DNA of 64,000 nucleotides from a virus: positions 62,001-126,000 of IMG/VR virus record IMGVR_UViG_3300025127_000013; one strand, written 5' to 3'. Position numbers and translations under genes: made by a program. Under the pieces are notes generated by a model. It ran no database searches and had not been told where the DNA came from. It was given only the letters and a program-made list of their open reading frames with translations. Below are positions 1,670-22,877 of the stretch, one piece after another (positions within the stretch are counted from its first letter, which is position 1; the number at the start of each line of letters is the position of its first letter).

Positions 1670-1679
1670 GAGATAATTA

Positions 1680-5365: not shown

Positions 5366-5376
5366 CTAAAAACTAG

Positions 5377-5387
5377 TACTATTTATA
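5377..5387 (+). promoter_or_regulatory. Candidate late promoter motif TACTATTTATA
   Basis: The 11-mer lies 15 bp before the ATG of the gene at 5403, just ahead of the AAGAGG ribosome site. The same core, ACTATTTA, recurs before many virion genes in this window without a TTGACA box upstream, suggesting a T4-late-like -10 element. The very short distance to the ribosome site is a weak point here. Confidence 0.45.
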
Positions 5388-5402
5388 AGAAGAGGTAATA
5401 AT

Positions 5403-6407
5403 ATGGCATTTTTGGATAATTCAGGAGACATCATACTTGATGCAGTTCTCACCGATGTTGGTCGTAAAAGAATGGCACAAGGAGATTTTAGAATCTCTAA
5501 GTTTTCAGTTGGCGATGATGAAATAGATTACCAACTTTACAACAAAAACCATCCTTCTGGTTCTGCATATTATGATTTAGAAATCCTTCAAACACCAGTA
5601 CTGGAAGCATTTACACAGGTTAATGCAAATATCAATTATGGGTTAACTACCTACTCAAATCAAAATTTGCTTTATTTGCCGTCTATTGTTCTTAATGATA
5701 AAACAACAGTTGGGACCATCGCGGTTAAATCAAATGGTGTGATTTATCTTTGCGATAACGGAACAACTGACCCTACCACTGGTCAGGGAACATCTGACAG
5801 ATTATCAAATGACAGTAACATCACCAATGTGCTGATTGGTTCTTCAGACGGCAACAATGTTATTTTAATTGAGACAGGAATTAGTACAACTGACCTTACA
5901 CCTTCATCGACTAATCAATCGCAATTTATAGTTACCAACGGATTACTAGATAACAGTTTTATGGTTAGTTTTGATTCAAGATTTATATCAGCGGTACAGT
6001 CGATCAGTTTAGGTTCTACATTAACTAATGCATCGGCTGTTGGTGATGGAAAACTTACTTTTACTGGGTTTGATACCTTAACCGGTGATTCAATTGATAA
6101 TATTGTTGAGAATTATAGAAGAGCATCAGCAAACGGTTTTATAAATCAAATTTACGAAAATGTTGTCGGTTCTGTTGATAAAAGTCTTAATTCTTCAGCT
6201 ATAACCGGCCCACGAGCAAGTTTCTGTGGTTTATCCTTTTTGATTCAGGACATATCACAACAGGATTATATTGACTTTGGTAAAACTAATCAAACCCAAG
6301 GCCCCGGCACGGAAACATACGACTTTATTGATACGACAGTTTATGTTCGCGGTGCATCAACAAATGTCACATTACAGCTTCCAATTAGAATTATTAAACT
6401 GTCATAA
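5403..6407 (+). CDS. Virion structural protein, 334 aa
   Basis: It starts with ATG after AAGAGG. The N-terminal ~50 residues (Met-Ala-Phe-Leu-Asp-Asn-Ser-Gly-Asp, then an Asp-Val-Gly-Arg-Lys-Arg-Met-Ala segment) look like a compact conserved module; I believe I have seen similar starts in other marine myovirus structural proteins but cannot name the family. The remainder is Ser/Thr/Asn-rich with beta-type alternation and no transmembrane segment. It heads a three-gene unit (5403-8829) behind a putative late promoter. Likely a tail-tip or fibre-associated protein; role inferred. Confidence 0.6.
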   Translation: MAFLDNSGDIILDAVLTDVGRKRMAQGDFRISKFSVGDDEIDYQLYNKNHPSGSAYYDLEILQTPVLEAFTQVNANINYGLTTYSNQNLLYLPSIVLNDKTTVGTIAVKSNGVIYLCDNGTTDPTTGQGTSDRLSNDSNITNVLIGSSDGNNVILIETGISTTDLTPSSTNQSQFIVTNGLLDNSFMVSFDSRFISAVQSISLGSTLTNASAVGDGKLTFTGFDTLTGDSIDNIVENYRRASANGFINQIYENVVGSVDKSLNSSAITGPRASFCGLSFLIQDISQQDYIDFGKTNQTQGPGTETYDFIDTTVYVRGASTNVTLQLPIRIIKLS

Positions 6408-6425
6408 ATATAACGGAGATTTTAA

Positions 6426-7559
6426 ATGCCAGCAAATTACGAACCACTTGATGTCAATACCGACTCAACAACCACAAAGACTATCTTACATGAAGTAATT
6501 CCATTAACCGGAACTATTGTAAGTGGTACATACGACAGTCCAGATGGCACATCTTTTAACATTAAGAATTATACTCATGGTATGTTTCAATCAGTCTATG
6601 ATTATCCATTCCTTAGTTCTTCTGCAAACCACATATTTGACTTAACAGTTTGTATACATTCTGGTTCTTCTTTAAGCTCGTCCACTCCCGGCACCCAACA
6701 AGCCAAGAAAATTAATACATATACACAGTTTGCTCAAGTTCTTCTCGGCTTTGAAGACACTGGATTAAACACAGTTGAAGTCTTTGAACCTGATCTGAAC
6801 ATCACTGACAACAACAACCAAATGAAAGAAGTATTTGTTATTCCTTTCTCGCGACTTGTAACAAAAGATCAGATTAAGAAAGGTTCTTTTTCTATCACTC
6901 TTGGAACTGGCTCGCATGCCTTCCCATTTGATAGCGGGGCCCCCGGAGATTCAAGACTGAAAATTCAAGATCTCTCAGCTAGTGAGCAAGGCGGAACATC
7001 ACCACATGTCGGCGGAGACTATGGTGTATTATATGTCTCCTCTGGTAGTCAACCATTTGCAACTAATCTTGTACCTGCGGGCCACGGCCCGGCCAATGCC
7101 GAAGATGATCACTTGGCGGTTGGAGCAGTATTCTATCAAGCCGGTATCGCTGTTATAACTGGTTCTGTTTTTGATCAAGTAAGTGGATCTTTTATAACAA
7201 CTGGTGGCGATACTGCAACATTCTCTGATGCCATAACAGGATCAGCTATTAGTGCCTCTTGTGATGCTATCAGACACAGAATCGGCGATATATCGTTTAA
7301 CAACTCCACAGAAATCAACTCTACAATTTACTTCTGCAGATTACCTGTTAATAAGTTTAACTATAGCACAAACCCAACATATACAAGCGGCAGTAAAATA
7401 CAAGTAAAAAGAACTGCAAGTGATTTACCAATCGCTTATGTGTCTACGATTGGATTGTATAATACCAGAAATGAATTGTTGGCCGTCGCAAAACTTTCCG
7501 AACCTCTTAAGAAGACACCACAGAATGAGTTGACAATTAGAGTTCGATTGGACTACTAA
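6426..7559 (+). CDS. Tail/fibre-associated structural protein A, 377 aa
   Basis: The ATG follows AACGGAG. The C-terminal ~90 residues resemble those of the next gene: a Phe/Val-Asn-Tyr-Ser-x-Asn-Pro segment, then Tyr-Val-Ser-x-Ile/Val-x-x-Tyr, Asn-Glu/Lys-Leu-x-x-Val-Ala-x-Leu-Ser-x-Pro and an Arg/Lys-Leu-Asp ending. The two genes are therefore tandem paralogues that diverged in their N-terminal parts. The composition is typical of exposed virion proteins (Gly, Ser, Thr, Asn). No catalytic motif seen. Confidence 0.6.
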   Translation: MPANYEPLDVNTDSTTTKTILHEVIPLTGTIVSGTYDSPDGTSFNIKNYTHGMFQSVYDYPFLSSSANHIFDLTVCIHSGSSLSSSTPGTQQAKKINTYTQFAQVLLGFEDTGLNTVEVFEPDLNITDNNNQMKEVFVIPFSRLVTKDQIKKGSFSITLGTGSHAFPFDSGAPGDSRLKIQDLSASEQGGTSPHVGGDYGVLYVSSGSQPFATNLVPAGHGPANAEDDHLAVGAVFYQAGIAVITGSVFDQVSGSFITTGGDTATFSDAITGSAISASCDAIRHRIGDISFNNSTEINSTIYFCRLPVNKFNYSTNPTYTSGSKIQVKRTASDLPIAYVSTIGLYNTRNELLAVAKLSEPLKKTPQNELTIRVRLDY

Positions 7560-7560
7560 T

Positions 7561-8829
7561 ATGTCTTACCGTAAGTTCGGTAAAAACGATATTCTCCTCA
7601 ATACAATGAGGACATATCCTGTTGTTGACTTTTTTGTTTACAATGGCAACATTTATTTCAACAACAATAGACACGAATCTGGTTCGTTTTCTGATAATAT
7701 ATTGGGAATTAGTAGCAGTTTCAGCGGTGGTGTTAGCTTATATGAATATAACATCGATCGGCTGACGGGTTCAAACAACTTTAGTTATCCTTACATTACA
7801 AAACAATCTGCTGGTGCCTCATTTAAAACCGTAAGTTCAACAAGGGCATCCACTGAGTTTCAATATGGCGATAGAATAAATGGGTCTTATCCAATGACTG
7901 CTTCGATATCTAGAGAGTTGATGTCTCCACAAGCTGGCATGAGAGAGTCGCTGATCAATAATGAAACTGGAGGCTCTACTCCAAATGCCGGCCGTCCAAA
8001 ATATCGACACTTTTATGCACTTAAAAATATTTTAAATGCAAATGCACAATTAAGTGAACATTATAGTGTAACTTCTGATTTAGGATCCGGCTGGAACAAA
8101 GCTGAGCAAATAATCAACACACTTTATATCCCGTCTATATTTTACGGCAGCAGAGTTAATCCGGGCTCTGTAAGCCTAAAGTGGTATGTTAGTGGTACTC
8201 TCGCCGCAGAACTAAGAGATACAAAAGAAAACGGAGAGTTAATAGAAGTCAGCAGCTCGAACTCAACTGGTAACGGTTTAGTAGCTGGGGTGGTTCTTTA
8301 TGATCAAGGCATTATCATGCTCACAGGCTCTTGGGATGTAGACCCAGCATCATCACTTCCATTAATTGATGGAACACCAGCAGGGGGTAATGTAAGCCCG
8401 AAATGGATATACTTTGGTATTGGTGGGAATGATGGAACTAATCCTGATACATTTACTCAACATTTTGGTTCTGCATCTTTTGGAATCAAATTTGAAGGTC
8501 ACACGGAAACACAAGTGTGTACAATGTTTGCTAAAGCCGGCCGCGGCCAAGTAAATTACTCTAATAATCCGTCATTTATTGAGAGAGGCCAAAGTTATCT
8601 TTTGAGATCTTCTTCAAGTGTTTATGAAGAAAACCCAAACAGAAAAATTAAAAATATCAATTCATCTAGTTTTGCAACACACAACGAATCGTTTGAAAGA
8701 CAAGTATATATTTCAAGAGTTGCAATATACGACGAAAACAAGAACTTAATGGGTGTTGCCACTTTATCAAACCCGGTCTTGAAAAAAGAAGACGAAGATT
8801 TTACATTTAAATTAAAACTGGATATATAG
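7561..8829 (+). CDS. Tail/fibre-associated structural protein B, 422 aa
   Basis: It starts one base after the stop of its paralogue. Residues ~330-422 match the C-terminus of the preceding protein in order and spacing (Val-Asn-Tyr-Ser-Asn-Asn-Pro, Tyr-Ile-Ser-Arg-Val, Met-Gly-Val-Ala-Thr-Leu-Ser-Asn-Pro, Lys-Leu-Lys-Leu-Asp). The N-terminal part is longer and different. Probably a second subunit of the same tail-end structure. This is the last structural gene before a switch to DNA-processing genes at 8842. Confidence 0.6.
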   Translation: MSYRKFGKNDILLNTMRTYPVVDFFVYNGNIYFNNNRHESGSFSDNILGISSSFSGGVSLYEYNIDRLTGSNNFSYPYITKQSAGASFKTVSSTRASTEFQYGDRINGSYPMTASISRELMSPQAGMRESLINNETGGSTPNAGRPKYRHFYALKNILNANAQLSEHYSVTSDLGSGWNKAEQIINTLYIPSIFYGSRVNPGSVSLKWYVSGTLAAELRDTKENGELIEVSSSNSTGNGLVAGVVLYDQGIIMLTGSWDVDPASSLPLIDGTPAGGNVSPKWIYFGIGGNDGTNPDTFTQHFGSASFGIKFEGHTETQVCTMFAKAGRGQVNYSNNPSFIERGQSYLLRSSSSVYEENPNRKIKNINSSSFATHNESFERQVYISRVAIYDENKNLMGVATLSNPVLKKEDEDFTFKLKLDI

Positions 8830-8841
8830 TAAAATATTGCT

Positions 8842-9408
8842 ATGATTTTAGGTGTAGATGTATCAACTAGCATTACAGGATTTGCGGTAGTCGCAGATGA
8901 ACAACTGGTTTATTACGATTCAATTGATTTAAGAAAATACAAAAATGTTTTTGATAAAACAATAGTCATTAAAGAAAAGATACTAGACTTGTATGAAATG
9001 TATCAGCTTAATAATGATGACAGTTCTTCGGCAGGGTTTGGAGATTCCGAGTTTCCCATTGAACATATTTATGTTGAGCAGCCATTTACATTTTTTAATT
9101 CTGGTGGTTCTTCCGGCAAGACTATGGCAGCTTTACAGAAATTCAATGGTATTGTATCTTGGTTACTGTTTGAAATATTCGAGATAAGACCGGAATACAT
9201 TGGTGCTACCTCTGCAAGAAAACAAGTGGGCATTAAAGTGCCCCGCGGAAAGAAAGCCAAACAAGTAGTTTTGGAACACTTGCTTGAAACAGAGCCAGCA
9301 TTTAACATCGAATATACAAAACATGGTAATCCAAGACCAGAGTCGTATGATCGTGCCGATGCAATTGTGATTGCAAAGGCGGGCTATAATTTAAAAAATG
9401 CTTCCTAG
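8842..9408 (+). CDS. RuvC-like Holliday junction resolvase
   Basis: A 188-residue RNase H-fold nuclease. It opens with the RuvC motif Gly-Val-Asp-x-Ser-x-x-x-Thr-Gly (Asp6), has a second acidic residue in Tyr-Val-Glu-Gln-Pro (Glu79) and ends with Asp-Arg-Ala-Asp-Ala (Asp170, Asp173), giving the expected four carboxylates. Size fits RuvC (about 170 residues). It would cleave four-way junctions made during replication and recombination and debranch DNA before packaging, the role T4 gives to endonuclease VII. It directly follows tail genes and precedes repair genes. Confidence 0.8.
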   Translation: MILGVDVSTSITGFAVVADEQLVYYDSIDLRKYKNVFDKTIVIKEKILDLYEMYQLNNDDSSSAGFGDSEFPIEHIYVEQPFTFFNSGGSSGKTMAALQKFNGIVSWLLFEIFEIRPEYIGATSARKQVGIKVPRGKKAKQVVLEHLLETEPAFNIEYTKHGNPRPESYDRADAIVIAKAGYNLKNAS

Positions 9409-9699: not shown

Positions 9700-9715
9700 A
9701 TGTTTGGAGGTTATT

Positions 9716-10648
9716 ATGAATCACTTGGGTTATGCCTGCATTAATATGGGCTTTTCATCGCTGCCAAAGAAACAACGGATTACGACAAACCGCAGCATGA
9801 TTAGAAGAACATTCGACGATCGCGGTATTGATTATGCATCTGAATTAGCATTACAAAATCTTCGTGACCTGTACACAATTCTAGAGTGGAATTTACAGCA
9901 CGATATTTACTTTTACCGACTGTCATCAGACATTATACCGTGGGCTTCAGAGTATAGTTTGGAAAGCATGCCTAATTTCGGTGCAATTCATGCTGCAGCA
10001 TTGAAAGCTGGTAACTTTGCTCGCAAACACGGCATGCGACTTACAGCACACCCCGGCCCATTTAACAAGCTTGCATCACCAAAGGAGCGAGTATTTGAGC
10101 TTACAAAAACTGATTTATCTATCCATGGTGAGTTATTTGATCTAATTGGTCTTCCTCGTACTCCGTATGCAAAACTCAACATTCATGTGGGTGCTGCTTA
10201 CGGTGATAAGCCATTCGCACTCGATAACTTTTGTAGAAACTTTGAACGGTTGCCTGAGTGTGTTCGCTCTCGCTTGACTGTTGAGAATGATGACAAGGAA
10301 TCTTTGTATTCAACTCAGGAACTTTATGAAGGAGTTTACAAGCGAATTGGCATTCCGATTGTATTTGACTATCATCATCATATGCTTCACACCGGTGGGC
10401 AAACTGAGCAGGAAGCTCTAGAGCTTGCATTGTCTACTTGGGGTGACATCAAGCCTGTTGTTCATTATTCAGAGTCCCGTTGCCTTGAACACAACAATCC
10501 TAAGATTAAGCCACAAGCACACTCTGACTTAGTGTATAATACCTTGAACAACTATGGTCATGAGTTTGATATCATGATTGAAGCTAAACATAAAGAGTTG
10601 GCACTGTTCCGATATCGGGAGAACGAAAAGTGTCTGATCGCAAAGTGA
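9716..10648 (+). CDS. uvsE: UV-damage endonuclease (UvdE/UvsE)
   Basis: I place the start at ATG 9716, five bases after GGAGG, rather than an in-frame TTG at 9704 that overlaps the ribosome site; this gives 310 residues, normal for bacterial UvsE. The N-terminus (Leu-Gly-Tyr-Ala-Cys-Ile-Asn-Met) and the TIM-barrel metal ligands are recognisable: Thr-Ala-His-Pro-Gly, Leu-Asn-Ile-His-Val-Gly, Val-Glu-Asn-Asp, Phe-Asp-Tyr-His-His-His and Val-His-Tyr-Ser. The family nicks DNA 5' of UV photoproducts to start repair. It is first in its own transcription unit, and its end overlaps the next start by 19 bp. Confidence 0.9.
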   Translation: MNHLGYACINMGFSSLPKKQRITTNRSMIRRTFDDRGIDYASELALQNLRDLYTILEWNLQHDIYFYRLSSDIIPWASEYSLESMPNFGAIHAAALKAGNFARKHGMRLTAHPGPFNKLASPKERVFELTKTDLSIHGELFDLIGLPRTPYAKLNIHVGAAYGDKPFALDNFCRNFERLPECVRSRLTVENDDKESLYSTQELYEGVYKRIGIPIVFDYHHHMLHTGGQTEQEALELALSTWGDIKPVVHYSESRCLEHNNPKIKPQAHSDLVYNTLNNYGHEFDIMIEAKHKELALFRYRENEKCLIAK

Positions 10649-13194: not shown

Positions 13195-13290
13195 ATGTTT
13201 GGTTTTATCGCAGACACACTTGTAAAAGCTATTTTTATTTACACATCATGGTATGGCTTTAATGCCTTCTTTTGGATGTTGTTAAATTAG
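13195..13290 (+). CDS. 31-aa hydrophobic leader-position peptide
   Basis: The ATG at 13195 follows AGAGGG. The 31-residue product is rich in Phe, Trp, Tyr and Ile with few charges and could span a membrane once. It is the first coding unit after a strong promoter and its stop (TAG 13288-13290) lies within the AGGAG ribosome site of the Mre11-Rad50 gene, so it could act as a translational leader as well as a membrane peptide. A 31-codon frame can occur by chance; the ribosome site and placement are the support. Confidence 0.45.
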   Translation: MFGFIADTLVKAIFIYTSWYGFNAFFWMLLN

Positions 13291-13298
13291 GAGAATTT

Positions 13299-16200
13299 GT
13301 GAGCATTAAAATAGCACACGTCTCTGATATTCATGTGCGAAAACTTAAATATCACAAAGAATATCGAGCCGTGTTTGAGCAGCTTTATGAAAAGCTGAGA
13401 GAAGAAAAGCCTGATATCATTGTTAATACGGGTGATACATTTCATACAAAGCTTGATTTGAGCCCTGAAGCAATCAGGATGATGAGCGAGCTATTTGTTG
13501 GTCTTGCTGATATTGCACCTTACCACATGATTCTTGGCAATCATGACATGAACTTAAAGAATAGTGGTCGGCTTGATGCCATATCACCAATTGTTGATTA
13601 TTTGGAACATCCAAATATTCACTTTCATAAATATGCATCTGTGGTGGAAGTAGCTCCCGGTATCGACTTGCATGTCTTGTCTATTGTTGATCCCGAGAAC
13701 TGGCAGAAACAATTACCCGATGACCGTGTTAATATTGCACTCTATCACGGTTCAGTAGTAGGGTCAGTGACTGATAGTGGCTGGATGATGACACACGGTG
13801 ACATATCACTCGAAGAGCTTGAAAAGTATGATTATGCAATGCTGGGTGATATTCACAAGACAGATCAAAAAGTTGATAATGATGGTCGAGCACGGTACCC
13901 GGGCTCACTTGTACAACAGAATCATGGTGAGTCAAATGATAAGGGTTATCTTATTTGGGATATCAAAGATAAGAATACATGGGCAACAAGGCATGTCTCA
14001 CTTACTAACCCGAAGCCGTTTATTACTATCGAACTTACTCGCAAAGGACGAATGCCAAAGAATATTTCTATTCCGCTTGGTGCTCGTCTTCGTCTCGTTA
14101 GTAATAATAATTTACCGCTTGACTCTATGAAAAGAGCAGTTGATGTAGCTAAACATAGATTCAAACCAGAAACAATATCGTTTTTGAATCGTGCATCAGG
14201 TGAGCGAGGTTCTGTTGAAGCATTAACTGATGGTTTGCAAACTGAAAATCTAAGAGATATAAAAGTACAAGAAGAATTGATAGATGAATATTTAGTTGAC
14301 TATGAAGTGCAAGAAAAGACACTTGAGAAAGTTTACGAACTAAATAAGAAGTATAACAAAATTGTTGAGGACAATGAGGATGTATCGCGGAATATTAACT
14401 GGAAACTTGTTGACTTTGAGTTTGACAATCTGTTTAATTACGGGGATGGTAATAATGTTAGCTTTGAAGAGCTAAGTGGTATTATTGGTATCTTTGGTAA
14501 AAACTTTTCTGGTAAAAGCAGTATCATTGATGGTATCCTGTGGACACTATTTAATACAACATCCAAGAATGAACGAAAGAACTTGAATGTTATTAACCAG
14601 AACAAAGAAGATTGTCGCGGAAAGGTAACAATACAGATTAATGATTTGGTCTATACAGTCGAACGAAAAGCTAAGAAGTACATCAAAAGACTGAAAGGCG
14701 AAGAAACATTAGAGGCTAAGACGGAGTTAAACTTTGAAGTGTATGACCCAGTTATGGGTGAAACCACATCTTTAAATGGGCTCACAAGAACACTCACCGA
14801 TGCTAACATACGAAAACAGTTTGGTACACTTGATGACTTTGCAGTTTCATCTTTATCGTCTCAGCACGGTGCTTTGGCATTTATCGATGAAGGCTCGACC
14901 CGTCGTAAGGAAATCATCGCGAAGTTTCTCGATCTTGAATTGTTTGATCGTAAGTTTAAGTTAGCCAAGGAAGACTCAGTTGACCTCAAGGGTGCACTTA
15001 AGAGACTTGAGACCAAGAATTATGATGATGAATTAGATTCTGTAAATGCATCGCTTGTTGAAGCGAGACAACAGATGAGCGAACACAAGTCAATTTGCAC
15101 TGCTCTAAAAGAAGCAGTCGTGGAATTAACTGATGTCAGAAATGAGATTGAGTCCAAAATTGATTCTATACCCGCTGAAATTATCGATATTTCAGCAGTC
15201 AATAAAGAAATCAGATTAAAAGAAAATCAAATAACAAAGCACATTCTTGAGAATGATGAATTTGCTGATACTTTAAAAACAAAACAAGGTGTATATAAAA
15301 AGATTGTGAGTTTTCTCGATGAGTTTGATTTACAGAAATTTGAAAATCAACGGCAACAAATTAATCAGTATAAAGAACAACTTAAGACACAAGAAGATAA
15401 TCTTGACAAACTACTCGAAGAACACAACTATATTCTGAAGAAAGAAGGCTTATTGCACGATCATGAGTATGATCCCAACTGTGAATATTGTTCTAACAAT
15501 GAGTTTGTTAAAGAAGCACAAGCAGCCGTTAGCAGAAAAGCTGATGTTGAGGCTCAACAAGCTGACACATTACAAACAATTAATATAATCACGGAAGAAA
15601 TCAAGAGTCTAAATCCAACAGATGTTGAAACACAATTTGAACGGTATAATAAGATAGAGTCTAACAAGCACACAGTATCATCAGAAATTGCTGATTTAAA
15701 TCTTGAGATCGAGAGAAACAAAAATTCTGTTTTATTTTTAGAAGACAAGCTAAAAGAACTGTGTGCAAAACGAGATGAATACGAGGAAAACAAAGAAGCA
15801 ATTGAAAATCTGGAAGCCTTAGTGACTCAGCTTAACAAGTGTCATTATAAGATTGAACAGACACAAAACAAGATTGACACTTGCGATGCTGCCACACTTG
15901 AACTTGTTAAGTCTGTTGGCTCATACGAACAAAAGATTGAAACCATCAAAGAACAAAAGCAGGAGTATCAAGACCTTCAAACCGAATTTGCTGCATACCA
16001 CTTGTTTATGATTTGTATGCATCCTAACGGTATTGCTTACGATGTTATTAAGAAGAAGATACCAGTAATCAACGAAGAGATTGCGAAGGTGCTTGCTAAT
16101 ATTGTTGACTTTGAAGTATTCTTTGAAGCTGCAGGTAATAAGTTTGATATCAACATCAAGCATCCAAAGTATGAAGAGCGACCGATAGAGATGGCATCAG

Positions 16201-16466
16201 GTGCCGAGAAATCACTGTCGGCAATGGCTATCCGCTTAGCATTGTTGGGAGTTTCATCATTGCCAAAGTCAGACTTATTTATCCTTGATGAGCCGGGCAC
16301 AGCACTGGACGAAGACAATATGTCGGGTTTTATTCAGATTTTGGAACTAATTAAGGTATATTTCAAGAACGTTTTGTTGATCTCCCACCTTGATTCGCTC
16401 AAAGATTGTGTTGATATGCAAATCGTAATTGATAAAAAAGCAGGATATGCAAGGGTCAACCAATGA
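13299..16466 (+). CDS. Single-chain Mre11-Rad50 (SbcD-SbcC) nuclease-ATPase fusion
   Basis: I place the start at GTG 13299, five bases after AGGAG, giving 1055 residues. Residues 1-~330 are an Mre11/SbcD phosphoesterase: Asp-Ile-His, Asn-Thr-Gly-Asp, Gly-Asn-His-Asp, Tyr-His-Gly and Gly-Asp-Ile-His. From ~370 the chain is Rad50/SbcC: Walker A Gly-Lys-Asn-Phe-Ser-Gly-Lys-Ser (~397-406), coiled coil, zinc hook Cys728-Glu-Tyr-Cys731, second coil, signature Ala-Ser-Gly-Ala-Glu-Lys-Ser-Leu (~966) and Walker B Phe-Ile-Leu-Asp-Glu-Pro (~992). T4 encodes these as separate gp47 and gp46. The complex processes DNA ends for recombination-dependent replication and host DNA breakdown. ATGA overlap with the next gene. 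Confidence 0.9.
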   Translation: MSIKIAHVSDIHVRKLKYHKEYRAVFEQLYEKLREEKPDIIVNTGDTFHTKLDLSPEAIRMMSELFVGLADIAPYHMILGNHDMNLKNSGRLDAISPIVDYLEHPNIHFHKYASVVEVAPGIDLHVLSIVDPENWQKQLPDDRVNIALYHGSVVGSVTDSGWMMTHGDISLEELEKYDYAMLGDIHKTDQKVDNDGRARYPGSLVQQNHGESNDKGYLIWDIKDKNTWATRHVSLTNPKPFITIELTRKGRMPKNISIPLGARLRLVSNNNLPLDSMKRAVDVAKHRFKPETISFLNRASGERGSVEALTDGLQTENLRDIKVQEELIDEYLVDYEVQEKTLEKVYELNKKYNKIVEDNEDVSRNINWKLVDFEFDNLFNYGDGNNVSFEELSGIIGIFGKNFSGKSSIIDGILWTLFNTTSKNERKNLNVINQNKEDCRGKVTIQINDLVYTVERKAKKYIKRLKGEETLEAKTELNFEVYDPVMGETTSLNGLTRTLTDANIRKQFGTLDDFAVSSLSSQHGALAFIDEGSTRRKEIIAKFLDLELFDRKFKLAKEDSVDLKGALKRLETKNYDDELDSVNASLVEARQQMSEHKSICTALKEAVVELTDVRNEIESKIDSIPAEIIDISAVNKEIRLKENQITKHILENDEFADTLKTKQGVYKKIVSFLDEFDLQKFENQRQQINQYKEQLKTQEDNLDKLLEEHNYILKKEGLLHDHEYDPNCEYCSNNEFVKEAQAAVSRKADVEAQQADTLQTINIITEEIKSLNPTDVETQFERYNKIESNKHTVSSEIADLNLEIERNKNSVLFLEDKLKELCAKRDEYEENKEAIENLEALVTQLNKCHYKIEQTQNKIDTCDAATLELVKSVGSYEQKIETIKEQKQEYQDLQTEFAAYHLFMICMHPNGIAYDVIKKKIPVINEEIAKVLANIVDFEVFFEAAGNKFDINIKHPKYEERPIEMASGAEKSLSAMAIRLALLGVSSLPKSDLFILDEPGTALDEDNMSGFIQILELIKVYFKNVLLISHLDSLKDCVDMQIVIDKKAGYARVNQ

Positions 16467-17599
16467 ACGACAACGATAATAACGAATTTGATTTTCTGCC
16501 TCCCGCAGAGGCACCACCCTCCTTTAATCAGGAGAAAGACCATTATCACGAAGAAGTAGAAGCAGAAGACTTTGGAATGGTAGAAGATTTCGGATTACAG
16601 ATGGAATACTCTGATGAAGATTTACTGCCTGAGAACACAGCCCCATCATCTATTAATGTGGGGTTTGTTGGTGTTGGTGGTGGTGGAAACAAAATGGCTA
16701 ATGCTTTTATTGAGCTTGGCTTCAACAAAACATTGCTTGTTAACACAACGGGCAAAGACATTCCTAAGAATGTTGAAGAGGATCATGTTGTCCTCATTCC
16801 CGATGCCGACGGTATTGGCAAAAATGTAGAATATGGAAAAGAGGTATTAACACAAAATGGAGCGATTGTTGAAGATGCTCTCCGCATCAAATTGGGGAAA
16901 GTTGATTGGTTATTCGTCCTTGCTGGCGGTGGCGGTGGGACCGGTAGCAGTGTCACTGCTCTTCATCCTGTGTTTGAGCGGTACCTTCGCTCTGTTCAAG
17001 CTTCTGGACAAGTAGTATATGTCACATCTTGGCCCACAGCACAAGAAAACCTTAATCCTACAATCGCTAGAAATGCCCTCACTCTTGCGAATGATGTGTC
17101 AAAACACCCACACATCATACTAGACAACGAACGAGCAACAAGATTACTTCGTGGTAGAATTGGTATGCTGGGTATGTATCCGGTTGCCAACACACAATTT
17201 GCAAAGTCATTAGCCCAAGTTTTGAAACTCTCCAATGAGGACTCACCGATCCAATCTTTTGATAGTAAGGACTTAGAAACTTGTCTGGGCAATGACGGTC
17301 GTGCCTTCATAGGCTCAACTATGATTAAAGATCCAAATACTGGTAAGCTTGGATCGGTGATCCTCCACAACTGCATGAATCGCTCTGCATGCCCTCCACC
17401 CAAAGGCAAAGCTGCAGCAGGATCGTTGGTGCTGGTTGTGTCAGAAGAGATGGTAGCTGACCCAAGAGTTAGCAAAAATATTGAGTCGGCAATCGCTTAT
17501 GTCGGCGGTCGATGTGAAACACTTTTCTCTGGTGTTTATGTCAGAAAGAATGTGCCCGGATTGATTGCGATACTAAGTATGAATGGATTAGCAACATGA
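16463..17599 (+). CDS. FtsZ/tubulin-like GTPase
   Basis: A 378-residue protein with an acidic, disordered ~65-residue N-terminal extension followed by an FtsZ fold. Visible are the first glycine loop Gly-Val-Gly-Gly-Gly-Gly-Asn (about 67-77), the tubulin signature Gly-Gly-Gly-Gly-Gly-Thr-Gly-Ser (155-163), an FtsZ-like segment ending Ile-Leu-Asp-Asn-Glu-Arg, and a T7-loop-like Phe-Asp-Ser-Lys-Asp-Leu (Asp267, Asp270) before Ala-Phe-Ile-Gly-Ser. Both T7-loop acids needed for GTP hydrolysis are present, so an active polymerising GTPase is likely. It overlaps the Mre11-Rad50 gene upstream and the next gene downstream by ATGA. It could position phage DNA or capsids, or interfere with host division; these roles are inference. 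Confidence 0.85.
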   Translation: MNDNDNNEFDFLPPAEAPPSFNQEKDHYHEEVEAEDFGMVEDFGLQMEYSDEDLLPENTAPSSINVGFVGVGGGGNKMANAFIELGFNKTLLVNTTGKDIPKNVEEDHVVLIPDADGIGKNVEYGKEVLTQNGAIVEDALRIKLGKVDWLFVLAGGGGGTGSSVTALHPVFERYLRSVQASGQVVYVTSWPTAQENLNPTIARNALTLANDVSKHPHIILDNERATRLLRGRIGMLGMYPVANTQFAKSLAQVLKLSNEDSPIQSFDSKDLETCLGNDGRAFIGSTMIKDPNTGKLGSVILHNCMNRSACPPPKGKAAAGSLVLVVSEEMVADPRVSKNIESAIAYVGGRCETLFSGVYVRKNVPGLIAILSMNGLAT

Positions 17600-17979
17600 A
17601 AATAACAAAACAACAACTTAAAGAAATCATCAAAGAAGAAATCAGTTCTATTATTGAAAAGGATGACGAAGACAAAGCAGAAGATGAAGAAGCAGAAGAC
17701 AAAAAGAAAAAATCTAAAAAGCAAATTGACTTGCACGGATTTTCTTCCGAGAAAGAGACGGCCGATTTTGTCAAGAAAAACCCATCATTTTTTAACGAGG
17801 ATGTAGAAGTTCCCGGCGGCGGTGTCAGAAGTGTAAAAGGTGTAAAAAGAAGTATTATGGAAAATTTAGAAGATGCTATGCAAGCAGCACAACGGGGCGA
17901 CTTCAATGCAGTTGCTACCAGAGTTGCTAACTTAGAAGCTTTTGTTGAAGCATTAAAAAAAGTAGGAGAAATCAAATGA
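17596..17979 (+). CDS. Small protein with shared N-terminal helix (candidate capsid-targeted)
   Basis: A 127-residue protein, ATGA-coupled to the FtsZ-like gene. It begins Met-Lys-Ile-Thr-Lys-Gln-Gln-Leu-Lys-Glu-Ile-Ile-Lys-Glu-Glu, a segment nearly repeated at the start of 20851 and related at 12340 and 18286. It is followed by a highly charged Asp/Glu/Lys linker (about 20-45) and a helical C-terminus. The Ile-Lys-Glu fits the Leu/Ile-x-Glu cleavage rule of the T4 gp21 protease family, a homologue of which is at 26588. I infer a head-core or packaged protein; not proven. Confidence 0.6.
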   Translation: MKITKQQLKEIIKEEISSIIEKDDEDKAEDEEAEDKKKKSKKQIDLHGFSSEKETADFVKKNPSFFNEDVEVPGGGVRSVKGVKRSIMENLEDAMQAAQRGDFNAVATRVANLEAFVEALKKVGEIK

Positions 17980-18284
17980 ACTGGTTAACAAATTTATGGA
18001 CTGCCTTAGTTAGAAAAACCTCAACAGTTGCAGACGAAATTACCGAAGAAGTTACCGAGGTTTTGGTTGAGGAAGATGATTCCTCTGTAGCAGAGATCTT
18101 TGAGGGCATCTGCAAGCAAGCAGGTCTTGGCGGCAAGTTCCTTGAAGGTTTGAGTGCAACTGAAAAGTTTGTTGCTTGGTACGATGGTACTGCTGATGAA
18201 GAATCTGTTAGAGCTTCATTGGCAGAATTCAAAACTACTGATCCAGCTATCAATGCAAAGATGACATCTATTGGTGGATTTTAA
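17976..18284 (+). CDS. Hypothetical protein, 102 aa
   Basis: ATGA overlap with the gene before it. The N-terminus (Met-Asn-Trp-Leu-Thr-Asn-Leu-Trp) is hydrophobic and could lie on a membrane, followed by an acidic segment with two Glu-Val-Thr-Glu repeats and a compact C-terminal part. No family recognised. Its place just before the holin-like gene makes a lysis or virion role possible, but this is only context. Confidence 0.55.
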   Translation: MNWLTNLWTALVRKTSTVADEITEEVTEVLVEEDDSSVAEIFEGICKQAGLGGKFLEGLSATEKFVAWYDGTADEESVRASLAEFKTTDPAINAKMTSIGGF

Positions 18285-18285
18285 A

Positions 18286-18921
18286 ATGAAAATTAGTATC
18301 TCAGAACTTAAAGAAATTATACAACAGGAAATTGACTCTCTTGATGAAGGCGGATATGGTGAAGGTTCTATGGCTCGTAGTCAACTTGGAAGAACTGCAG
18401 AAGTTGCTTTAATGCTTCAGGATATGATCGGAGACGATACTAATCTCGAAGAATGGGTTGAGTCTAAAATTACTAAATCACAAGATTATCTTAGTTCAGT
18501 ATTAAATTATATGAGAGGTGAGCAGCTTTCTGAAAGAGAATTGTCTAAATCTGAAAAAGATGAAAAAGAAGACATTGTAAAAGGTATGAAAAAAAATACG
18601 AAAGACTTTGAGAAAAGATATGGTAAAGATGCTAAAAGTGTAATGTATGGTGCTGCTACAAATATTGCTAAAAAGAATAAAGGCAAGAAAGTCAAAGAAG
18701 GTCTTGAACAACTTACTCCCGAAAACATGGAGTTGTTGTTTGATGTTTTCAAAAAGATGGCAACAGAGCCAGCAATTGTAACTGCTCTTGGCATGGGCGG
18801 GATGGTCGCTGCTATTGATAAAATGAAAGATATGGTTATGAAGGATCAGAATCCACCCTCCGGTGTTTCGGGCACTACTAGTCCTGATGGCCCAGATATG
18901 ACATCTGGAGCAAGTGAATAA
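18286..18921 (+). CDS. Hypothetical protein with shared N-terminal helix, 211 aa
   Basis: The start is ATG 18286, one base after the preceding stop; an in-frame GTG at 18271 lies inside the previous gene. The N-terminus Met-Lys-Ile-Ser-Ile-Ser-Glu-Leu-Lys-Glu-Ile-Ile-Gln-Gln-Glu belongs to the shared leader set. The middle is Lys/Glu-rich and helical, and a Gly/Ala/Met hydrophobic segment lies at about 160-180. Ends in a Pro/Ser/Gly-rich tail. Likely another head-internal or virion protein by analogy; function unknown. Confidence 0.6.
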   Translation: MKISISELKEIIQQEIDSLDEGGYGEGSMARSQLGRTAEVALMLQDMIGDDTNLEEWVESKITKSQDYLSSVLNYMRGEQLSERELSKSEKDEKEDIVKGMKKNTKDFEKRYGKDAKSVMYGAATNIAKKNKGKKVKEGLEQLTPENMELLFDVFKKMATEPAIVTALGMGGMVAAIDKMKDMVMKDQNPPSGVSGTTSPDGPDMTSGASE

Positions 18922-18931
18922 CGGAGTTAGT

Positions 18932-19132
18932 ATGATGTCTAAAGCAAATGCATTTTTAGATACTTGGCTAGCCAAACTGACATCTCGCAAGCTAATGGTC
19001 TGGTTAGCTGCGACTGGTTTAACATTGGCGGGACATGTTACTAGCGAAGACTGGGTAATTATTTCAGCAATCTATATTGGAGGTCAAACTATTATTGATG
19101 GCATCTCTAGATTGCGAGGTTACAATGATTAG
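18932..19132 (+). CDS. Putative holin, 66 aa, two transmembrane segments
   Basis: The start is ATG 18932, five bases after CGGAG (or ATG 18935). The protein has a basic Thr-Ser-Arg-Lys before a first membrane helix (about 24-40), a short polar turn with Ser-Glu-Asp-Trp and a second helix (about 45-60), then a basic end. This matches a small phage holin pattern in which Ser-Arg-Lys precedes helix 1 and an Asp-Trp turn precedes helix 2. It is followed, with overlaps, by two membrane-anchored coiled-coil proteins resembling spanins. Topology is clear; the holin role is inferred. Confidence 0.55.
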   Translation: MMSKANAFLDTWLAKLTSRKLMVWLAATGLTLAGHVTSEDWVIISAIYIGGQTIIDGISRLRGYND

Positions 19133-19508
19133 AAAACAAGTTTTAGAGTTTGTTGTATCACACTGGAAAGAAATACTAATAGTTGTGTTAGCAATCGTGG
19201 TCGTTGCCAAGACGAGATATGACTATAATCTAATGCAGAAAACATATAAGACACAAATAGAGTCTGCACAATCACAAATCGAAGGTCTTAAAGAAATACA
19301 CAAGCAAGAGATTAAAGAAAAGCAATTGCTTATGGAAAGTCATCTTGAATCAATCGCCGAAATAGAAAAAGACTACGAAGATGCTCTTGATATGATAGAC
19401 GAGCTAAGACAAGACAAAGCTGGCAAATACAGGAATAAGTTTAATAGTGATAGAGAAGAACTAATTAAAGATATAGAATCTAAGTTTGGTATTGAGTATG
19501 TTCCTTAA
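19125..19508 (+). CDS. Inner-membrane coiled-coil protein (Rz/i-spanin-like)
   Basis: The start is ATG 19125, overlapping the holin-like stop by 8 bp. The 127-residue product has one N-terminal membrane helix (about 12-29, Ile/Val-rich) and then a long Glu/Lys/Gln coiled coil to the end. This is the layout of inner-membrane spanins that help breach the outer membrane in Gram-negative hosts. The position between the holin-like gene and another membrane coiled-coil gene supports that. No lipoprotein partner with a clear lipobox is seen, so the assignment is tentative. Confidence 0.5.
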   Translation: MIRKQVLEFVVSHWKEILIVVLAIVVVAKTRYDYNLMQKTYKTQIESAQSQIEGLKEIHKQEIKEKQLLMESHLESIAEIEKDYEDALDMIDELRQDKAGKYRNKFNSDREELIKDIESKFGIEYVP

Positions 19509-19917
19509 GTTATTACTTCTGCTGACAATGACCGCAAATGCCACAGAGCCTGCGAAGTTTACCGTATTAGAATATAAAGCCCCAGCACCTTTTGCTGGTG
19601 TTTTGTTTGACGAAAATGCAATAGCAAAGGTATTGTCAAGTTATGACATAGCATTATACTCTTGTGAGATAAAAACTGAGTATGAACTTAAAGTGTTGAG
19701 AGAAGAATACGAATTTAAATTAGAGAATTTAAAAATAGAACACAATGCTTTAACAAAAGAATACGACTTGTTTATAATGGAGAAAGACAAGGAAATAAAA
19801 GCACTTGTAAACTCTCTAGAGAAAACAGCACCAAAATATAAATGGTGGTGGTTTGCTGGAGGTGTCGCCGTTGGCACTGCGAGTGCATATGGTGCTTATA
19901 AGGTATTTAATGAGTAA
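19498..19917 (+). CDS. Secreted coiled-coil protein with C-terminal membrane helix
   Basis: The start is ATG 19498, overlapping the previous gene by 11 bp. The 139-residue product has a signal-peptide-like start (Met-Phe-Leu-Lys, a run of Leu, then Ala-Asn-Ala as a likely cleavage site), a Pro-rich segment with Ala-Pro-Phe-Ala-Gly-Val-Leu-Phe, a long coiled coil and a C-terminal Trp-Trp-Trp, Gly/Ala-rich membrane helix. It could be a one-gene spanin-like or periplasm-spanning protein working with the preceding gene in lysis. No lipobox Cys near the N-terminus. Confidence 0.5.
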   Translation: MFLKLLLLLTMTANATEPAKFTVLEYKAPAPFAGVLFDENAIAKVLSSYDIALYSCEIKTEYELKVLREEYEFKLENLKIEHNALTKEYDLFIMEKDKEIKALVNSLEKTAPKYKWWWFAGGVAVGTASAYGAYKVFNE

Positions 19918-20302
19918 TAAAAACTTTGATCAGATTGCTGCAATCGAGAAGGCCATAAAAGAAAAGTATGGTGATGATGCGATTGCGAACCCAAAAGCTT
20001 TCTGGGACGAAACTAAAGAAAAAGAATATCTTGAGCAGATGAAAGATTTTTATGCCAAGACTTCTAAAAATTTAGAATGGGAAGATAAAATTGATGTAAA
20101 TGGTATAAAGGTTAGCAAAAAACTACTTAATAAAGAACCTCGTAAAAATTGTCCTGTCTGCGGAGCCTTTCCAAAGAAATCCATGGATGATGTCTGCTTA
20201 GTCAAATTTGAATGTTGCTACAAATGTTTCATACAATATGTCGAAGGCAGAGAAGAACGATGGCAAAAAGGTTGGCGACCAAAACTAAATAAGGATAATT
20301 AA
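19910..20302 (+). CDS. Putative zinc-binding protein, 130 aa
   Basis: I choose ATG 19910, which overlaps the preceding stop, over an upstream in-frame start within that gene. The N-terminal half is helical and charged; the C-terminal half holds Cys-Pro-Val-Cys and Cys-Cys-Tyr-Lys-Cys about 25 residues apart, a probable zinc ribbon, then a basic Trp-Gln-Lys-Gly-Trp-Arg-Pro end. No enzymatic motif. It sits in the run leading to terminase; a packaging or head role is possible but not shown. Confidence 0.6.
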   Translation: MSNKNFDQIAAIEKAIKEKYGDDAIANPKAFWDETKEKEYLEQMKDFYAKTSKNLEWEDKIDVNGIKVSKKLLNKEPRKNCPVCGAFPKKSMDDVCLVKFECCYKCFIQYVEGREERWQKGWRPKLNKDN

Positions 20303-20303
20303 A

Positions 20304-20846
20304 ATGGCTACAGTTTATGAAATAGTTCAAGGCTTATCACAGGCAGCAGCGAATGCATATGACGGTGCATTGGATGAAAACAACGAACTTCTTAAGATTG
20401 GATTAAATCGTGAAGAGGGTGATATGTTATATGATAGAAGAGTGATGGACGGATTTAAGGTCCGCTTTTCTGGCAATACCATGTGTTTAACTTATATGTC
20501 CGAAGTGCAGCTTAAGCAGGTGCATGAGACAGGCTTTGAAGATGAAGTGCAGTCTACCATGTCTGAAGTTATCAAGTTCCTTAAAAAAGAGTATCGCAAA
20601 ATTACAGGCAGTTCTGTGACACTAACACAGATCGAAGAAGCAGACATTAGAGTTGAGAGCACATCAAATGTTCGTTCATTTTTAACAGCCGTTCAGCAGT
20701 TTACGGTTGGCGGACTAGACGAGGAAATGAATAATAAAGATGGTTCAAAGGCACCAAACGATTATTGGCAAGACTTCATGTCTCAAGGTGGCTGGACTGG
20801 CGATGGTGGTAAAAGACCATCAAACGATACCAGAAAAAAGGAATAA
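20304..20846 (+). CDS. Hypothetical protein, 180 aa, pre-terminase
   Basis: The ATG follows AAGGATAATTAAA. It is a well-folded-looking alpha/beta protein with Arg-Glu-Glu-Gly-Asp-Met-Leu-Tyr-Asp-Arg-Arg near residue 35 and a Gly/Asp/Trp-rich disordered C-terminus. I do not recognise a family. It is encoded two genes before the terminase large subunit, where small terminase or head genes are often found, but nothing in the sequence shows a DNA-binding small-terminase fold. Confidence 0.55.
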   Translation: MATVYEIVQGLSQAAANAYDGALDENNELLKIGLNREEGDMLYDRRVMDGFKVRFSGNTMCLTYMSEVQLKQVHETGFEDEVQSTMSEVIKFLKKEYRKITGSSVTLTQIEEADIRVESTSNVRSFLTAVQQFTVGGLDEEMNNKDGSKAPNDYWQDFMSQGGWTGDGGKRPSNDTRKKE

Positions 20847-20850
20847 GTAA

Positions 20851-21297
20851 ATGAAGATTACCAAGAGACAACTTCACAAAATTATTCTTGAAGAATACAT
20901 GAAAGAAGAAAACATCACAGAGTATAGCGAAGAAGCAGAAGAATTAATTAGAAAAATGATAGGCGACGATGAATACAATCGCCGCCGTGCTCTTGAAATG
21001 CCTAAAGATCGAAACGATGGAAACACAGCCCCGATGCAAAAAACCTCTGATTCGGTAGAGGATAAGATTGCAAGTTTGGTTCAGGGTATGCAACCAGATG
21101 ATGTGGCCGAACTTTTTCAGTCCGTCTTTTCAAGATTACCCGGTGTAGAGATGCAGGATGATGAGCCCGATCCACCTTCTTTGTATGGCGATCCTAGAGA
21201 CGATGGCAGATCTCCAATCACACTTGGCCCTGTTAGAGAAGACTTTGATTTATCTGCACTACAAGAAATGATTCGTACAATGATTAGGGATGTATGA
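20851..21297 (+). CDS. Small protein with shared N-terminal helix, 148 aa
   Basis: It begins Met-Lys-Ile-Thr-Lys-Arg-Gln-Leu-His-Lys-Ile-Ile-Leu-Glu-Glu, almost the same leader as the gene at 17596, with an Ile-Leu-Glu candidate prohead-protease site. The rest is acidic and Pro-rich in the second half (Asp-Asp-Glu-Pro-Asp-Pro-Pro), ending in a helix. The last codons overlap the terminase ATG by 4 bp. Candidate head-core, packaged or small terminase-like accessory protein; unassigned. Confidence 0.6.
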   Translation: MKITKRQLHKIILEEYMKEENITEYSEEAEELIRKMIGDDEYNRRRALEMPKDRNDGNTAPMQKTSDSVEDKIASLVQGMQPDDVAELFQSVFSRLPGVEMQDDEPDPPSLYGDPRDDGRSPITLGPVREDFDLSALQEMIRTMIRDV

Positions 21298-22877
21298 GTT
21301 TTGAACTTACCAAAAAACAAAAGTTTCAAGAAATATTAAAGTGTGGTAAAGACCCAGCATACTTCTTGAAAAATTATGCCCGTATATCACATCCGATGCA
21401 CGGGCTAATCCTTTTTGACACATATGATTTTCAAGATACTTTATTAGACGATTTTAACGATTATAGATTTAATATTATCTTGAAAGCAAGACAACTAGGT
21501 ATTTCAACAATCACGGCCGGGTACATTTCTTGGCTTATGCTTTTTCATAAAGATAAGTCAATCCTTGTTATGGCAACTAAGTTTGCAACTGCTGGTAACC
21601 TTGTTAAAAAGGTTAAAAGCATTATGAAGAATTTGCCAGAGTGGATTCGCATAGCTACAATCTCGGTTGATAACCGAACATCATTTGAACTGTCTAATGG
21701 CTCTTCAATTAAGGCGGCCTCAACTTCTGGAGATGCTGGTCGTTCTGAAGCACTGTCATTACTTGTTCTTGATGAGGCTGCACACATTGAAGGTCTTGAA
21801 GAGTTGTGGACTGGTCTGTACCCCACACTGTCTACTGGTGGTCGTTGCATCGCACTGTCAACTCCTAATGGTGTTGGTAATTGGTTTCATAAAAACTGTG
21901 TTGATGCAGAAAGTGGAGCGAACAACTTTAATCTCACAACACTACCATGGGATGTTCATCCCGATAGAGATAAAGAGTGGTACAAAAAAGAAACCAGAAA
22001 TATGTCCAAGCGGCAGATTGCTCAAGAGCTTGAATGTAATTTCAACACTTCTGGCGAGACTGTAATTGATCCTGATTGTATGGAATGGCTTTTATCAAAT
22101 GTGTGTGAGCCAAAATATAGAACTGGTTTTGATAGAAACTTTTGGATTTGGGAAGAGTATGATCCTACATGTAATTATCTTATGGTTGCTGATGTAGCCA
22201 GAGGTGATGGTGCTGATTATTCTACTTTTCATATGGTTAAGTTAGAAACACTGCAAGTAGTTGGTGAGTATCAGGGTAAGCCAACTTTAGATATGTATGC
22301 TAATATGCTAAATCAAGTTGGTAGAGAATTTGGAAATGCAATGTTAGTTGTAGAAAACAACAATGTAGGCTTCTCAGTGCTTGACAAATTAATCGAAGCA
22401 CAATATCCGAACTTATACCACTCAGTCAAATCGACACACGAATATATCGAGCAGTATCAAGCAGAATATAGAAACAGTGCTGTTCCGGGTTTTACTACAT
22501 CATCAAAGACCCGACCCCTTATAGTAGCGAAATTAGAAGAGTTTATCAGAAATAAACTAATTACGGTATATTCTTCTCGTACAATTAATGAGATGAAGAC
22601 TTTTATTTGGAGGAATGGTCGCCCACAAGCTATGAAAGGTTATCATGATGATCTCATCATGGCTCTTGCAATTGCATGTTGGGTTAGAGATACAGCGATT
22701 CAAAACAGTGCAAGAGATTTAAATTACCAACGGGCTTTTGTTGATGCAATCATAACTTCCAAAACCACCATGAATACACAAATAAAAGGTCAAATAGGAT
22801 ACAAAAAACAAGAATCTTTTGATAAACTTAATGAAGCAAAAAGTATTTATGACCAGTACAAATGGATTATAAAGTGA
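21294..22877 (+). CDS. terL: Terminase large subunit (DNA packaging ATPase-nuclease)
   Basis: A 527-residue TerL of T4 gp17 type. The ATPase half has the Walker A-like Ala-Arg-Gln-Leu-Gly-Ile-Ser-Thr (about 64-72) and Walker B Leu-Leu-Val-Leu-Asp-Glu-Ala (about 155-161) with the catalytic Glu. The RNase H-like nuclease half has Val-Ala-Asp-Val-Ala-Arg-Gly (about 297), Val-Glu-Asn-Asn (about 351) and His-Asp-Asp (about 450). It docks on the portal, encoded next, and drives DNA into proheads. A recognisable small subunit is not seen; it may be one of the unassigned genes upstream. Confidence 0.92.
   Translation: MSFELTKKQKFQEILKCGKDPAYFLKNYARISHPMHGLILFDTYDFQDTLLDDFNDYRFNIILKARQLGISTITAGYISWLMLFHKDKSILVMATKFATAGNLVKKVKSIMKNLPEWIRIATISVDNRTSFELSNGSSIKAASTSGDAGRSEALSLLVLDEAAHIEGLEELWTGLYPTLSTGGRCIALSTPNGVGNWFHKNCVDAESGANNFNLTTLPWDVHPDRDKEWYKKETRNMSKRQIAQELECNFNTSGETVIDPDCMEWLLSNVCEPKYRTGFDRNFWIWEEYDPTCNYLMVADVARGDGADYSTFHMVKLETLQVVGEYQGKPTLDMYANMLNQVGREFGNAMLVVENNNVGFSVLDKLIEAQYPNLYHSVKSTHEYIEQYQAEYRNSAVPGFTTSSKTRPLIVAKLEEFIRNKLITVYSSRTINEMKTFIWRNGRPQAMKGYHDDLIMALAIACWVRDTAIQNSARDLNYQRAFVDAIITSKTTMNTQIKGQIGYKKQESFDKLNEAKSIYDQYKWIIK

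What the first reader, a model, noticed from the sequence alone, without database searches (positions are those of the whole stretch)
16463..17599. Canonical FtsZ/tubulin-like GTPase in a T4-type phage
The protein keeps the glycine loops, the Gly-Gly-Gly-Thr-Gly signature and T7-loop acids, so it should polymerise and hydrolyse GTP. Phage tubulins such as PhuZ are known from nucleus-forming jumbo phages, and TubZ from plasmid-like phages, but this one sits in a lytic T4-like genome, has an acidic N-terminal extension and is translationally coupled to the Mre11-Rad50 fusion. That linkage hints at a role in placing or segregating replicating DNA, or in blocking host division.
Basis: partly seen in the sequence, partly recalled or inferred. 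Interest (0 to 1): 0.7.

Follow-up and report, generated by a model that had tools for sequence, protein, structure and literature searches.

The report
New marine-phage family of FtsZ-like GTPases
A large group of ocean phages carries its own version of the bacterial division filament protein FtsZ, intact in every copy examined and inherited with the phage lineage, and it belongs to none of the phage tubulin families described so far.

Summary
Window 16463-17599 (+) encodes a 378-aa tubulin/FtsZ-fold GTPase whose T1, T4 and T7 catalytic residues are intact in 109 of 109 distinct relatives. It is not a recent host ftsZ capture, and it fails the family-model and C-terminal tests for both FtsZ proper and PhuZ. 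It represents a separate, apparently undescribed phage family: at least 173 close matches in IMG/VR plus a divergent branch (about 50-64% identical) on contigs up to 293 kb. By terminase phylogeny the carriers form one clade, and FtsZ and terminase distances track each other (Mantel r 0.93), so the gene is vertically inherited. The acidic N-terminal extension is real, more constrained than the core and present in all members, while the C-terminal tail typical of FtsZ, TubZ and PhuZ is missing. No chimallin was found. The most likely role is an autonomous cytomotive filament positioning phage DNA or assembling virions without a phage nucleus. Polymerisation and GTPase activity are inferred, not shown; the host is unknown.

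The parts
16463..17599 (+). Phage FtsZ/tubulin-like GTPase, 378 aa
   Evidence: ORF; Pfam, NCBIfam and PDB matches; AF2 model and Foldseek matches to CetZ, FtsZ, TubZ
16463..16648 (+). Acidic N-terminal extension (residues 1-62), ending in the family-wide element DEDLLPENTAPSS
   Evidence: pN/pS 0.034 in residues 35-62; element shared by both branches, L55 and N58 in 109 of 109; mostly disordered in the model, residues 51-60 mean pLDDT 79
16670..16693 (+). T1 nucleotide loop GVGGGGNK (residues 70-77)
   Evidence: G70, G72-75, K77 in 109 of 109
16925..16948 (+). T4 signature loop GGGGGTGS (residues 155-162)
   Evidence: 157-162 invariant in 109 of 109
17255..17278 (+). T7 catalytic loop SFDSKDLE (residues 265-272) with D267 and D270
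   Evidence: both Asp in 109 of 109
16463..16466 (+). ATGA overlap of the FtsZ-like start with the Mre11-Rad50 stop
   Evidence: present in 14 of 72 distinct relatives
13272..16466 (+). Upstream neighbour: Mre11-Rad50 (SbcD-SbcC) fusion, 1064 aa; context only, not a conserved partner
21294..22877 (+). T4-type large terminase, used as lineage marker

Best explanation
The protein belongs to a separate phage tubulin/FtsZ family. It most likely binds and hydrolyses GTP by the usual head-to-tail mechanism (the T1/T4 pocket of one subunit completed by the T7 acids of the next) and forms a dynamic filament from phage-encoded subunits alone. The filament most likely acts as a cytomotive scaffold that positions phage DNA, replication sites or assembling virions in the infected cell, doing without a nucleus what PhuZ does in nucleus-forming phages. 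As there is no C-terminal tail, the conserved acidic N-terminal segment is the likely place of partner binding or filament regulation. Shown here: fold, intact loops, selection on the extension, one clade, vertical inheritance, no fixed gene neighbour. Inferred: polymerisation, GTPase activity, the role of the extension and the positioning function. Rough odds: self-assembling GTPase filament 0.85; positioning of phage DNA or virions as its main role about 0.45.
For: Tubulin fold with a confident model. All catalytic positions of T1, T4 and T7 invariant in 109 members, which argues for hydrolysis-competent self-assembly rather than a decoy. Carriers are one clade by terminase; FtsZ and TerL distances correlate at r 0.93 with 0 of 5000 permutations as high, and FtsZ is as well conserved as TerL or better, so it is a core gene of the lineage. 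All 16 terminase-seeded contigs with at least 6 kb upstream carry it. It has moved within the genome several times yet was kept, as expected of a function that needs no operon partner. Carriers reach 293 kb. Analogy: PhuZ filaments position phage DNA and traffic capsids (PMC7950403; PMC12908238).
Against: No biochemical or imaging data exist for any member. The host is unknown. No chimallin was found in 19 carrier records, so the cargo that PhuZ moves has no known counterpart here. No partner gene is conserved beside it. The branching order among FtsZ, TubZ, phage G and PhuZ types is unresolved (AU p 0.13-0.61), so function cannot be carried over by descent.
Confidence: 0.5

Rival explanations
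1. Division blocker: the phage protein interferes with the host Z-ring, by co-assembling with host FtsZ or titrating its partners, so that cells grow larger before lysis.
For: Several phages target host FtsZ (lambda Kil, T7 Gp0.4, T5 Hdi; papers listed). The best family-model match is FtsZ.
Against: Known phage blockers are small proteins unrelated to FtsZ (established knowledge). A long stem separates it from cellular FtsZ (3.5 and 3.9 changes per site on the two stems), which makes co-assembly unlikely. It lacks the C-terminal peptide by which FtsZ recruits partners. A poison would not need T1, T4 and T7 all invariant.
Confidence: 0.2
2. TubZ-like partition: the filament segregates the phage genome during a carrier or pseudolysogenic state.
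For: TubZ does this for plasmids and a plasmid-like prophage (PMC7950403). The best tree weakly joins the family with TubZ and phage G (85/64).
Against: No TubR-like neighbour and no iteron array near the gene; no TubZ C-terminal tail; the genome carries a virion-assembly and lysis gene set. An integrase was not searched for.
Confidence: 0.15
3. Envelope or virion-assembly scaffold: the filament organises membrane-linked head assembly or lysis rather than DNA.
For: In L322 and L403 the gene follows the major capsid gene; in the window's group it precedes the terminase.
Against: In other carriers it lies beside phoH or genes of unknown function; no membrane anchor is evident in the N-terminal tail.
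Confidence: 0.15

Closest known systems
PhuZ (Pseudomonas phages phiKZ and 201phi2-1; PHROG 4733)
   Same: Phage-encoded tubulin-fold GTPase with T4 glycine loop and T7 acids.
   Different: 13 bits against PHROG 4733 (control 354 bits); no PF22334 C-terminal domain (control 139 bits); no C-terminal acidic tail; no chimallin in carriers; separate clade.
Cellular FtsZ (TIGR00065)
   Same: Nearest curated family model and nearest PDB sequences; core of similar length, same loops.
   Different: 45.9 bits against a 295-bit cut-off; outside the FtsZ branch; no C-terminal linker or peptide; acidic N-terminal tail instead.
TubZ of Bacillus plasmids (pBM400; PHROG 17961)
   Same: Fold (Foldseek E 7e-19); weak match to PHROG 17961.
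   Different: 22 bits against 57 for pBM400 TubZ; no TubR gene, no iterons, no C-terminal tail.
Bacillus phage G gp138 (annotated putative FtsZ-like)
   Same: Only isolate phage with a tblastn match (25% identity over half the protein).
   Different: Separate clade (100/99), no N-terminal extension, has a C-terminal extension; carried by an unrelated phage without a detectable homologue of this terminase.
A0A6J5RW92, 'FtsZ Cell division GTPase' of an uncultured Caudovirales phage
   Same: Best match in the viral structure library (E 2.8e-19, TMq 0.73).
   Different: 17% identity and 452 aa; its sequence was not at hand for the tree.

Membership tests
Tubulin/FtsZ superfamily | Tubulin GTPase fold with T4 GGGTGS-type loop | tested here: met
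Tubulin/FtsZ superfamily | T7 catalytic acids | tested here: met
   D267 and D270 in 109 of 109
Tubulin/FtsZ superfamily | GTP-dependent polymerisation | not testable with these tools
   Needs biochemistry
FtsZ (cell division protein) | Equivalog score cut-off of TIGR00065 | tested here: not met
   45.9 bits against 295.2
FtsZ (cell division protein) | C-terminal linker and conserved peptide | tested here: not met
   Chain ends 12-18 residues after the start of the PGL motif, directly after the last strand, in 108 of 109 members
FtsZ (cell division protein) | Placement inside the cellular FtsZ branch | tested here: not met
   Separate branches, FtsZ 95/96 and this family 99/97
PhuZ | PHROG 4733 and PF22334 C-terminal domain | tested here: not met
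   13 bits and no PF22334 hit; controls 354 and 139 bits
PhuZ | C-terminal helix H11 with acidic tail | tested here: not met
   Ends after the last strand; feature as described in PMC3678025
PhuZ | Common descent with PhuZ to the exclusion of the others | tested here: inconclusive
   AU p 0.55
Nucleus-forming phages (Chimalliviridae) | Chimallin shell protein | tested here: not met
   0 of 19 carrier records, both controls found; records may be fragments
Nucleus-forming phages (Chimalliviridae) | Multi-subunit RNA polymerases | tested here: inconclusive
   None found with PF00623, but the search also missed phiKZ
TubZRC partition system | Adjacent TubR gene and tubC iterons | tested here: not met
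   Neighbour is Mre11-Rad50, no repeat array in 12.2-21.3 kb
TubZRC partition system | Membership of the TubZ-like PHROG 17961 | tested here: inconclusive
   22 bits against 57 for pBM400 TubZ
FtsZl1 / FtsZl2 | C-terminal coiled coil (FtsZl1) or about 300-aa C-terminal alpha/beta region (FtsZl2) | tested here: not met
   Neither present; chain ends after the FtsZ-like core (definition from PMC2875224)
T4-type contractile-tailed phage | T4-type terminase, portal, major head protein, tail sheath, UvsX | tested here: met

The most novel reading that the evidence does not exclude
An independent phage cytoskeleton: a T4-type marine phage lineage positions its replication or assembly sites with a self-made FtsZ-like filament without any protein nucleus, controlled through an N-terminal acidic tail in place of the C-terminal tail used by FtsZ, TubZ and PhuZ.
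Probability: 0.35. Interest if true: 0.85.

Novelty: new variant of a known kind. Interest (0 to 1): 0.6.

Why it matters
Phage tubulins with a demonstrated cellular role come from nucleus-forming jumbo phages (PhuZ) or partition systems (TubZ), and a survey of marine jumbo phages reported shell and tubulin homologs only in its phiKZ-like cluster (PMC9123017). A core tubulin/FtsZ gene in a separate, common lineage without chimallin would mean that cytoskeletal organisation of infection is more widespread than thought, and it makes the question of what phage tubulins do without a nucleus testable. The conserved N-terminal tail gives a concrete handle for finding partners.

Tried and rejected
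Host from the tmRNA tag: the tag pattern hit a Ca. Neomarinimicrobiota MAG and a Flavobacteriales MAG, but both contigs are themselves phage contigs of this lineage and the ten sampled tmRNA tags of the Neomarinimicrobiota differ, so this is co-binning only. A search of 399 Flavobacteriales genomes added one further carrier MAG, 245 Neomarinimicrobiota genomes none. Microcystis phage Mel-JY01 and Flavobacterium phage immuto were checked for a hidden tubulin at comparable places: the first has a DNA methyltransferase after its Mre11-Rad50 gene, and the protein tried in the second showed no tubulin-like sequence on inspection; tblastn against all phage records found only phage G. No match in plasmids. 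No enrichment of the T4 late promoter upstream. The idea that Mre11-Rad50 linkage tells the function was rejected. Recent ftsZ capture was rejected. The deep sister group could not be resolved. TubZ proteins of a toxin-bearing phage and of a virulence plasmid were not fetched as yardsticks; pBM400 TubZ served instead.

Full report
What is there. The ORF at 16463-17599 (+) is real, 378 aa, and overlaps the stop of the upstream Mre11-Rad50 fusion as ATGA. The record is an IMG/VR virus contig of 130,761 bases, of which the window is 62001-126000. The protein matches the Pfam Tubulin domain, the FtsZ profile (well under its equivalog cut-off) and FtsZ chains in the PDB. It scores only 13 bits against the PhuZ PHROG and 22 bits against PHROG 17961, which controls show to be a TubZ-like group. 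Of two AlphaFold2 models, the one with the divergent branch in its alignment has pLDDT 86, core about 95 and pTM 0.82 and matches CetZ, FtsZ and TubZ structures. Most of the first 50 residues are predicted disordered in both models.

The family. A scan of IMG/VR found 173 stretches encoding relatives of the window protein; the distinct sequences fetched are about 85% identical or more in the core. A tmRNA-tag pattern search then led by chance to a phage contig inside a Flavobacteriales MAG with a 56% identical protein, and through it to 28 further IMG/VR loci on contigs up to 293 kb, about 50-64% identical to the window protein. All 109 distinct members compared keep the T1, T4 and T7 residues listed under the observation check. 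The only isolate-phage hit is Bacillus phage G gp138 at about 25% identity.

The tails. Members carry an acidic N-terminal extension of 43-102 residues (median 30% D+E, 3% K+R) and essentially no C-terminal tail. Residues 35-62 have pN/pS 0.034 against 0.10 for the core; synonymous sites are near saturation, so the values are rough. The two branches share the element just before the GTPase domain: EDFGMVEDF...SDEDLLPENTAPSSI in the window's group and DDFDFVxxYDDDP...DERLLPENxAxSAI in the divergent branch. Its last part is modelled with fair confidence (residues 51-60, mean pLDDT 79). FtsZ, TubZ and PhuZ place such elements at the C-terminus; for phiKZ the C-terminal tail stabilises the filament (PMC3678025).

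Descent. In a maximum-likelihood tree the family is one clade (99/97), apart from cellular FtsZ (95/96), PhuZ (100/100) and the phage G type (100/99). Which of these is its sister is unresolved; AU tests reject none (p 0.13-0.61). By large terminase, 17 carrier phages are one side of a branch (100/99) against Flavobacterium phage immuto, Microcystis phage Mel-JY01 and a 484-kb metagenomic phage; tblastn with the window protein against all phage records returned only phage G, so these three show no detectable homologue. FtsZ and TerL distances correlate (Mantel r 0.93, 0 of 5000 permutations as high), and FtsZ is as well conserved as TerL or better in every comparison with the window. The simplest reading is one acquisition followed by vertical inheritance. 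Independently, all 16 terminase-seeded contigs with at least 6 kb of upstream sequence have the gene; shorter flanks say nothing because the FtsZ-TerL spacing varies from 2.2 to 7.1 kb.

Genomic context. In the window's group the gene lies between Mre11-Rad50 and the terminase, but the ATGA overlap is present in 14 of 72 distinct loci and up to 2 kb intervenes in others (one mis-assigned locus, L068, left out). In the divergent branch it follows the major capsid gene (L322, L403), lies near phoH (L314, L316, L324, L325, L327-L329, L331) or sits between homologues of two genes of unknown function (L332-L334); in G666 and G672 it is roughly 90 and 50 kb from the terminase (coordinates). Linkage to Mre11-Rad50 therefore carries little functional information, and a function that needs a fixed operon partner is unlikely.

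Phage type. The record has T4-type terminase, portal and major head protein, head-tail adaptor, tail sheath, UvsX, a DnaB-like helicase and an endolysin. An integrase was not searched for. No chimallin was found in 19 carrier records while both controls rang. The RNA polymerase search was negative but insensitive, since it also missed phiKZ. A PhuZ-style nucleus is therefore not supported, within the limits of incomplete records.

How it most likely works. Invariant loops on both faces of the subunit indicate head-to-tail assembly with hydrolysis at the interface, as in characterised relatives. Retention as a core gene without fixed neighbours, in phages up to 293 kb, points to a task carried out by the filament itself; positioning of phage DNA or assembling virions is the best-supported analogy. 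A division blocker is the main rival, weakened by the divergence from FtsZ and the intact active site. A TubZ-like partition role lacks TubR and tubC. None of this has been shown biochemically, and the host is unknown.

Known or new. No paper found in the library describes this family. A review speaks of two distinct FtsZ/tubulin representatives in jumbo phages (PMC7824862), and a marine jumbo-phage survey reports tubulin only in its phiKZ-like cluster (PMC9123017). A viral structure library holds a remote 'FtsZ' entry from an uncultured phage (17% identity). PHROGs v4 shows no dedicated group for it. I file it as a new variant of a known kind: a phage tubulin family with its own tail architecture and phage lineage. 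That most of these contigs are marine rests on the marine MAGs among the hits and on general knowledge of the JGI data sets, not on metadata checked here.

Noticed in passing
L083:9982-10319 (G000:C1:9982-10319, upstream of the window): The phage encodes its own tmRNA (tag ANNNLHFDEAARLAA) and three tRNAs. Relatives carry tmRNAs with varying tags (ANNNNHFEQRLAA, ANNNNHFESVRLAA and others), unlike those of the sampled Neomarinimicrobiota.
   Followed up: partly
window 17596-21297: Several small ORFs between the FtsZ-like gene and the terminase begin with MKITKxQLKxIIxEE-type leaders, with more in L284 and L235; perhaps a shared signal for packaging into the prohead. The stretch varies from 2.2 to 7.1 kb among relatives.
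   Followed up: no
window 13272-16466: Mre11 and Rad50 are fused into one 1064-aa protein. Microcystis phage Mel-JY01 has a similar single protein at 31% identity, and a 484-kb metagenomic phage has related reading frames at about 29%.
   Followed up: partly
L402, L403, L404: GTDB species genomes of a Ca. Neomarinimicrobiota (MED589) and a Flavobacteriales bacterium (SZUA-1004) contain contigs of this phage lineage: contamination, or a hint of host.
   Followed up: partly
window 9704-10648: A UV-damage endonuclease UvdE gene lies near the primase and Mre11-Rad50 genes.
   Followed up: no
window 78-9408: Eight consecutive ORFs of 187-950 aa have no Pfam match; three of them were also tried against PHROGs without a match.
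   Followed up: no
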